Translations under genes and position numbers: made by a program | Notes under the pieces: generated by a model | Database searches by the model: none | The model's input: the letters and a program-made list of their open reading frames with translations, nothing else | Told to the model about the DNA's origin: nothing | In this document: piece by piece, positions 41,901-44,900 of the stretch | How positions within the stretch are numbered: the first letter of the stretch is position 1 | Layout of the letters: each line of letters starts with the position of its first letter | From: Apostichopus japonicus | Lineage: Eukaryota; Echinodermata; Holothuroidea; Aspidochirotida; Stichopodidae | Assembly (NCBI RefSeq): GCF_037975245.1 | Contig: NC_092578.1 | Span: 20,044,821-20,108,820 of the forward strand | Length of the DNA: 64,000 bases | Direction of reading: 5' to 3'

Positions 41901-44900
41901 GATGGTGTAATTGTATCAGTAATGTGCTATGATTAAGTTACTACAGTAGGTAGCACTCTTACTCCATGATGTTCTTAGTGTGATGGGATGTAGGTGTGCA
42001 TAATACTCTAAGCATGATAATATGGTGTTAGGATGGTGTAATTGTATCAGTAATGTGCTATGATCAAGTTACTACAGTAGGTAGCACTCTGACTCCATGA
42101 TGTTCTTAGTCTGATGGGATGTAGGTGTGCATAATACTCTAAGCATGATAATATGGTGTTACGATGGTGTAATTGTATCAGTAATGTGCTATGATCAAGT
42201 TACTACAGTAGGTAGCACTCTTACTCCATGATGTTCTTAGTCTGATGGGATGTAGGTGTGCATAATACTCTAAGCATGATAATATGGTGTTAGGATGGTG
42301 TAATTGTATCAGTAATATGCTATGATCAAGTTACTACAGTAGGTAGCACTCTTACTTCAATATGTTCTTAGTCTGATGGATGTAGCTGTGCATAATACTC
42401 CATAATACTCCATCAATTAGACCAGAACACTACAGGTAATTGCATATATCATTCATGGTGCATTTTATTCCTCACTTTCTTTAAACTCATTTGCTGCCTG
42501 CAGTTAAATATTAATTGACTTGTGATGATAAGTTGCAAATCAAATGCATTCGTTCTTACATTACAGAACCACAGGTGAGATCAATTGCAGACCATGTGCG
42601 TCCAGACAGACTTAGTAAGTGCTTTACAACAAAGACAAGATGGTGTGATATCGTAATACTCATTCATGCATGCGGGTCATCACACATGGGTTACAGCAAC
42701 CACAGATTGATTACTTTCTTCAAATTCATTTATCATCATATTCTTACTAATTCTTAGATAAACAATAAAATCAAAGTGTCTGGAAAATTTTAAACCTTAA
42801 CTTTAATAAAAAATAAAAAGTCTGTTGTGATAACCATTCTAGGCATTGGAACAAATATGTTTTGGTGTTTTTGTGTGAATGTTGTGTTCATTTTTTTTCT
42901 CACCTTCAGCCTTACTGTTTAGTGCAACATTTCGAAAGAAGGTTGAGCGGCTGGCCAGGGACATCTTGACAGATCCTGTAAGGGTTGTTCAAGGAGATAT
43001 AGGGGAGGTAAGTACTATAGTTGCCTAATATGAGGGTTGTTCAAGGAGATATCGGGAAGGTAAGTACTATAGTTGCCTAATATGAGGGTTGTTCAAGGAG
43101 ATATCGGGGAGGTAAGTACTATAGTTGGCTAATATGAGGGTTGTTCAAGGAGATATCGGGGAGGTAAGTACTATAGTTGCCTAATATGAGGGTTGTTCAA
43201 GGAGATATAGGGGAGGTAAGTACTATAGTTGCCTAATATGAGGGTTGTTCAAGGAGATATAGGGGAGGTAAGTACTATAGTTGCCTAATATGAGGGTTGT
43301 TCAAGGAGATATAGTGGAGGTAAGTACTATAGTTGCCTAATAGGAGGGTTGTTCAAGGAGATATAGGGGAGGTAAGTACTATAGTTGCCTAATATGAGGG
43401 TTGTTCAAGGAGATATAGGGGAGGTAAGTACTATAGTTGCCTAATACGAGGGTTGTTCAAGGAGATATAGGGGAGGTAAGTACTATAGTTGCCTAATATG
43501 AGGGTTGTTCAAGGAGATATAGGGGAGGTAAGTACTATAGTTGCCTAATATGAGGGTTGTTCAAGGAGATATAGGGGAGGTAAGTACTATAGTTGCCTAA
43601 TATGAGGGTTGTTCAAGGAGATATCGGGGAGGTAAGTACTATAGTTGCCTAATATGAGGGTTGTTCAAGGAGATATTGGGGAGGTAAGTACTATAGTTGC
43701 CTAATATGAGGGTTGTTCAAGGAGATATAGGGGAGGTAAGTACTATAGTTGCCTAATATGAGGGTTGTTCAAGGAGATATAGGGGAGGTAAGTACTATAG
43801 TTGCCTAATATGAGGGTTGTTCAAGGAGATATAGTGGAGGTAAGTACTATAGTTGCCTAATAGGAGGGTTGTTCAAGGAGATATAGGGGAGGTAAGTACT
43901 ATAGTTGCCTAATAGGAGGGTTGTTCAAGGAGATATAGGGGAGGTAAGTACTATAGTTGCCTAATACGAGGGTTGTTCAAGGAGATATAGGGGAGGTAAG
44001 TACTATAGTTGCCTAATATGAGGGTTGTTCAAGGAGATATAGGGGAGGTAAGTACTATAGTTGCCTAATATGAGGGTTGTTCAAGGAGATATAGGGGAGG
44101 TAAGTACTATAGTTGCCTAATATGAGGGTTGTTCAAGGAGATATCGGGGAGGTAAGTACTATAGTTGCCTAATATGAGGGTTGTTCAAGGAGATATTGGG
44201 GAGGTAAGTACTATAGTTGCCTAATATGAGGGTTGTTCAAGGAGATATAGGGGAGGTAAGTACTATAGTTGCCTAATATGAGGGTTGTTCAAGGAGATAA
44301 AGGGGAGGTAAGTACTATAGTTGCCTAATATGAGGGTTGTTAAAGCATGGGAAATCCTATGGAATAATGTTGTATGAGTGGGGTGTTGGGTAGGCAAAGA
44401 TTTTTTATGTTAGTCTATGAAATAATGTCAATATTTCTCTTGGTTTCTGACATCTGTCACCATTTCTGTTTAGGCTAATCAAGATGTTACTCAGGTGATA
44501 GAAATTCTTCCAACGCAGGCAGAAAAATGGACTTGGCTTCTCCAAAGACTGGTCGGTTTCACATCTGCTGGTAGCGTTCTCATCTTTGTCACAAAGAAAA
44601 TCAATGCCGAGGAACTCACTAGTAACTTAAAAGTTAATGACTTTAAAGGTATGGAATTGCCATACAAAGTGCATTTTCTTTTTCTTCACACCTCAGCTTT
44701 CTTTAGTTTGTACATCAATTATAACATGTTGAAGAGAAACTAATGTGAATAGATTTAAGAAATGAGCCTACTGTGTTCTTCCTCCTCACAATTCTGTCCA
44801 CCACTATTTAAACAAAAATGCTTGCTGATCAATGTTTATGCTTGCCCGCTACACCAATGGGAATCAAAAACCCTCTTCTATCTCCTCTCTCTACTTTTCC

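What the first reader, a model, noticed from the sequence alone, without database searches (positions are those of the whole stretch)
42981..44341. 26 tandem copies of a real exon end plus 5' splice site in DDX42
Seen: the last 27 coding bases of exon 11, its GTAAGT donor and 25 intronic bases form a 52-bp unit repeated 26 times with no indel, with a 10-unit higher-order period. So 26 equal donors compete for one upstream acceptor-defined exon. If any but the first donor were used, the reading would continue GTA AGT ACT ATA GTT GCC TAA and stop just after helicase motif III, giving a transcript expected to be removed by nonsense-mediated decay. Copy number could thus tune DDX42 output. DDX42 is itself a splicing factor, so feedback is conceivable (speculation).
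Basis: partly seen in the sequence, partly recalled or inferred. Interest (0 to 1): 0.87.

Follow-up and report, generated by a model that had tools for sequence, protein, structure and literature searches.

The report
Repeated splice donors in urchin gene
In what is probably a sea urchin genome, the end of one exon of the DDX42 gene together with its splice-donor signal has been copied head to tail 26 times; a few similar cases turned up at other exon ends of the same genome, and the likeliest reading is that only the first donor is used and the rest are tolerated decoys.

Summary
At 42981-44332 lie 26 full 52-bp units without indel (27 exon + 25 intron bases, GTAAGT included), then a 9-bp partial copy; the 10-unit period is clear. 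The gene is DDX42 (3e-53). Reading past donor 1 meets a stop after six codons. The genome is probably a sea urchin. Arrays fill 55% of the mapped DDX42 span. A survey of 142 exons found three more multi-copy arrays spanning a donor: two in one chaperonin gene (12 and 7 units) and one whose 37 other counted copies no longer read GTAAGT. Copies of exon-edge sequence lie on the donor side in 8 exons and the acceptor side in 1 (my strict count); flank swaps gave 0 of 566. The bias is modest (p 0.04, or 0.07 without DDX42). Published minigenes with two equal donors used only the upstream one under exon definition (PMC9225289). Best explanation: tolerated decoys, donor 1 used; no RNA was seen. Copy-number tuning of DDX42 is untested. 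The human IFI6 minisatellite is a precedent.

The parts
42910..43007 (+). DDX42 exon holding helicase motif III (SAT), 98 nt, ends phase 0 at GGG GAG
   Evidence: tblastn with a recalled human DDX42, splice context, PDB match
42981..44332 (+). array of 26 units of 52 bp: 27 exon bases + 25 intron bases
44333..44341 (+). 9-bp partial unit AGGGTTGTT; possible pre-existing microhomology that seeded the first duplication (inference)
43008..43013 (+). donor 1, GAG|GTAAGT, score 11.7 on a rough recalled matrix (second highest of 11 DDX42 donors scored)
43060..44313 (+). donors 2 to 26, one every 52 bp
43026..43028 (+). in-frame TAA met if donor 1 is passed over
42615..42909 (+). upstream intron, 295 nt
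44474..44648 (+). next exon; acceptor AG at 44472-44473, outside the array; 1466 nt from donor 1, 166 nt from donor 26

Best explanation
A minisatellite arose by tandem duplication across the exon/intron border of a working DDX42 exon and spread, partly in a block of about ten units. Because every unit carries a complete donor, the first copy still gives the normal mRNA. The exon is defined between its acceptor and donor 1 (98 nt); donors 2-26 are mostly unused decoys, and a transcript that uses one meets a stop and should be removed by nonsense-mediated decay. The array is therefore tolerated, not selected. It is one instance of a recurring class in this genome, seen mainly on the donor side, since an extra acceptor upstream would tend to be used and is harmful. 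Shown: anatomy, stop, recurrence, more cases on the donor than on the acceptor side in the sample. Inferred: donor 1 usage, decay, neutrality, reason for the asymmetry.
For: Array and stop. Arrays occupy 34% of the window and 55% of the mapped DDX42 span, and 10 of 12 DDX42 introns measured hold one. Other multi-copy arrays spanning a donor: 3 in the 128 exons outside DDX42; arrays spanning an acceptor: 0 of 142 (sites called with confidence: 127 donors, 100 acceptors). Exon-edge copies: raw 10 donor-side vs 1 acceptor-side of 142 exons; 8 vs 1 by my reading after removing L098 (array starts after the donor) and a weak AGT-rich hit (E 9e-4); 0 and 0 of 566 flank-swapped controls. Array occupancy 0-25 and 25-50 nt inside the intron: 4.3% and 4.3% next to donors, 0% and 0.6% next to acceptors. 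Three of the four variable sites in the exon part of the DDX42 units change the amino acid, so the copies show no coding constraint (sites, by reading). No array AG scores like an acceptor (best -0.9; 14 real DDX42 ones 1.1 to 10.8) and the intron lacks AATAAA/ATTAAA. Upstream of two equal donors used exclusively in exon-defined minigenes (PMC9225289, passages).
Against: No RNA was seen. In the same paper the upstream donor is preferred in only 60% of natural near-equal pairs, and the upstream-acceptor preference is reduced under exon definition, which weakens both legs of the argument. Donors 25 and 26 lie 218 and 166 nt from the acceptor, under the about 250 nt at which intron definition is said to operate, so they could compete. 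Donor columns (-2 to +6) do not vary in the DDX42, 121-bp and inner 46-bp units (chance 0.35, 0.39, 0.03; combined 0.09), which does not look like purging of harmful decoys. The asymmetry is modest: 8:1 p=0.039 and by gene 6:1 p=0.125, 7:1 without DDX42 p=0.07 (arithmetic), and constraint on branch point and pyrimidine tract would also give it.
Confidence: 0.7

Rival explanations
1. The array regulates DDX42: a share of transcripts uses later donors and decays, the share depends on copy number, and since DDX42 is a splicing factor this may feed back.
For: All 26 donors are strong and later ones give a stop. Donors 25-26 are within intron-definition distance of the acceptor. Later donors are kept in 3 of 4 arrays. 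In human IFI6 two downstream repeat units are used as donors (PMC4526556, passage).
Against: Equal-donor minigenes used only the upstream site. Like arrays sit in chaperonin genes, with no splicing role known to me. In the 31-bp array GTAAGT survives only in the first copy. Invariance of donor columns is not significant.
Confidence: 0.15
2. Assembly artefact: the true locus has one or few units.
For: No reads were available; arrays are hard to assemble.
Against: Ordered private variants with a 10-unit block pattern; arrays with other periods at other exon ends; one location only. Exact copy number may still differ.
Confidence: 0.06
3. The units act as zero-length exons or ratchet points (AG|GTAAGT) or as tiny introns, removed stepwise.
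For: 25 of 26 units read GAG|GTAAGT and one AAG|GTAAGT, and units hold a CTAAT branch-like word (by reading).
Against: The AG before GTAAGT scores at best -8.1 as an acceptor and no array AG exceeds -0.9; the sequence before it is purine-rich. No special RNA folding (z 0.21 for 42910-43240).
Confidence: 0.03

Closest known systems
[quoted passage not shown] 1995)
   Same: A minisatellite at an exon/intron border whose units offer donors.
   Different: There, two downstream units are used as donors and three mRNAs encode different isoforms (PMC4526556 passage); unit length 12 bp and in-frame extension are recalled. Here the unit is 52 bp, holds 27 bases of a conserved exon, and later donors give a stop. 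The 1995 paper itself is not held.
Intron gain by tandem duplication of an AGGT-containing exon segment (Rogers 1989 model)
   Same: Tandem copies of exon sequence with AGGT; in two fission yeast genes introns span duplicates of a 24-bp segment (PMC4974935 passages).
   Different: There the duplicates supply both GT and AG of a new intron. Here the acceptor (44472-44473) lies outside the array.
Competition of equal donors under exon definition (Carranza et al. 2022, PMC9225289, passages)
   Same: Identical strong donors downstream of one acceptor.
   Different: Two donors in minigenes there, 26 natural ones here.

Membership tests
Minisatellite / VNTR | head-to-tail units of about 10-100 bp, many copies | tested here: met
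   52 bp x 26
Minisatellite / VNTR | copy number varies between individuals | not testable with these tools
   one assembly only; block duplication suggests turnover
IFI6-type donor-providing minisatellite | array crosses an exon/intron border and units carry a donor | tested here: met
IFI6-type donor-providing minisatellite | more than one unit is used as donor in mRNA | not testable with these tools
   no RNA held
IFI6-type donor-providing minisatellite | later donors extend the protein in frame (recalled feature) | tested here: not met
   TAA six codons after donor 1
Intron gain by AGGT tandem duplication | repeat copies supply both donor and acceptor | tested here: not met
   acceptor outside the array
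DDX42 gene | encodes a DDX42 helicase core | tested here: met

The most novel reading that the evidence does not exclude
In this sea urchin, tandem arrays of 'exon end + donor' are a recurrent, donor-biased class. They form a natural series of 2 to 26 donors behind one acceptor, in which copy number sets a bimodal choice between donor 1 (exon definition) and the last donors (intron definition, e.g. DDX42 donors 25-26), and so the share of transcripts sent to decay in essential genes.
Probability: 0.15. Interest if true: 0.75.

Novelty: new variant of a known kind. Interest (0 to 1): 0.55.

Why it matters
How a spliceosome picks among identical donors is studied with minigenes of two sites (e.g. 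PMC9225289). Here nature supplies 7, 12 and 26 in conserved genes. If only donor 1 is used, it is strong evidence for exon-centred choice outside vertebrates; if not, copy number becomes a dial on gene output. The donor/acceptor asymmetry could be tested genome-wide.

Tried and rejected
Ratchet points, mini-introns and pseudoexons: no acceptor-like AG in the array. Masking of later donors by RNA structure: fold of 42910-43240 not better than shuffles, z 0.21. Selection keeping the donors: not significant; with all 12 units of the 46-bp array one donor column varies (last unit) and P is 0.017, with units 2-11 none varies and P is 0.03, and I combined the latter. First control for the exon-edge scan kept 40 nt of each exon's own flank and gave 12 donor-side and 1 acceptor-side hits of 564; I judged it contaminated by the exons' own repeats, without inspecting the hits, and replaced it with full flank swaps (0 and 0 of 566). 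Survey rows not examined: 36 of 106 DEAD and chaperonin rows, 66 of 126 kinesin rows, the 70 myosin and 19 AAA rows; the 79 Helicase_C rows were not used as a set. Splice-site scores use frequencies recalled from memory. Some exon edges were off by 1-2 bases and were corrected. DDX3Y MSY2 minisatellite (passages): promoter/5'UTR case, not alike. Passages on double occupancy gave nothing that decides donor choice. Literature searches; nothing closer than IFI6 in their listings; passages of eight papers were seen, the other listed papers were not opened.

Full report
What is there. The array is as described apart from small points: 26 full units of 52 bp at 42981-44332, a 9-bp partial copy to 44341, no indel. 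Units 5-15 compared with 15-25 differ at one site in all, so the latest growth was a block of about ten units; no order shuffle of 1000 gives such a period. Unit 1 equals the consensus. The exon is 42910-43007, and the next acceptor, at 44472-44473, lies outside the array. The gene is DDX42 by match to solved chains (3e-53) and by 14 pieces in order along a recalled human query.

Which organism. The genome has 671.6 Mb in 35 contigs. A Bindin match (5e-29, 62 of 238 positions), a family that I recall as sea-urchin specific, and a mitochondrial gene order that I recall as echinoid or holothuroid (genes named by reading) point to a sea urchin. No species was identified.

Setting. Tandem arrays of period 7 or more cover 34% of the window and 55% of the mapped DDX42 span; 10 of the 12 DDX42 introns measured hold one, but only this one reaches a donor.

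Recurrence. I scanned 142 exons found by domain searches: 33 DEAD rows (two of them DDX42 exons), 37 chaperonin, 60 kinesin and 12 more DDX42 exons (dropped rows are listed under Tried and rejected). Within 300 nt, copies of exon-edge sequence were found on the donor side in 10 and on the acceptor side in 1. By my reading, with at least 8 true exon bases, 8 and 1: the DDX42 exon; three exons of one chaperonin gene on C21 (read as CCT8 from recall); a chaperonin exon on C17; kinesin exons L088, L099 and L104; acceptor side only a DEAD exon (L035). L088 and L099 are weak (E 8e-4 and 3e-4); in one C21 exon the copy lacks the donor and in L104 the copied donor is changed. Full flank swaps gave 0 of 566 on either side. 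Arrays with several copies spanning a donor: DDX42 (52 bp), C21 (46 bp with 12 GTATGT donors; 121 bp with 7 units and one further donor copy), C17 (31 bp; GTAAGT only in the first copy, the 37 others that the pattern counted read GTAGTA); none spans an acceptor. Passing donor 1 meets a stop before the second donor in three of these four; in C17 the stop lies just past the place of the second donor, so use of copy 2 there would shift the frame instead.

Statistics, for and against. Raw 10:1 p=0.012, strict 8:1 p=0.039, by gene 6:1 p=0.125, multi-copy arrays 4:0 p=0.125. Without DDX42, which brought me here, strict is 7:1, p=0.07 (arithmetic). Occupancy by arrays rises with distance from both sites but is 4.3% in the first 25 nt after donors and 0% in the last 25 nt before acceptors. 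The branch point and pyrimidine tract alone could explain part of that.

Mechanism. Carranza et al. (PMC9225289, abstract and passages) found that under exon definition the upstream of two equal donors is favoured (exclusively so in five minigenes with 365-nt flanking introns; 60% upstream over all natural near-equal pairs), and that upstream acceptors tend to be preferred, less so under exon definition. DDX42's flanking introns are 295 and 1466 nt, so exon definition is expected and donor 1 should be used. The same rule would make donor-side copies harmless and acceptor-side ones costly, as the survey suggests. Against this, donors 25 and 26 lie 218 and 166 nt from the acceptor, so an intron-centred choice of the last donors cannot be excluded. 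That is the specific point where RNA data would decide.

Selection. Variable sites in the exon part of the DDX42 units include three amino-acid changes among four (sites, by reading), as expected of non-coding copies. Donor columns do not vary in the DDX42, 121-bp and inner 46-bp units, not significantly so (combined p 0.09), and GTAAGT was lost from the later copies of the fourth array. Neither purging nor upkeep of decoys is shown.

Known or new. The human IFI6 minisatellite is the precedent (title in reference lists; one descriptive passage; the paper itself not held). What differs is the unit (a true conserved exon end), the stop, and the recurrence on the donor side within one genome. The searches listed under Tried and rejected showed no report of this in their listings.

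Noticed in passing
window 20661-25098: Long inverted repeat whose arms contain 179-bp tandem repeats, with 97-98% complementary outer arms: looks like a foldback-type element.
   Followed up: partly
window 16372-17116 and 18628-19035: The same 76-bp minisatellite in two nearby arrays; its unit contains TGTAAGT.
   Followed up: no
window 50562-51845: 33-bp units in both orientations side by side.
   Followed up: no
window 59113-60051, minus strand: 313-aa open frame that reads like part of a reverse transcriptase (by recall, no search).
   Followed up: no
L047 396-1253 and 1717-2257: Two neighbouring exons of one chaperonin gene each carry their own exon-end/donor array.
   Followed up: yes
L051, L047, window array: The four multi-copy exon-end arrays have periods 31, 46, 121 and 52, all one more than a multiple of three.
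   Followed up: no
L035 (oriented) 1393-1449 and 1467-1522: The only acceptor-side case: acceptor and exon start in two copies.
   Followed up: partly
G000 contig C29 (31 kb): Pieces of a mitochondrial-type COX1 with TGA inside, at more than one place on one small contig, beside the 16-kb mitochondrial contig C35.
   Followed up: no
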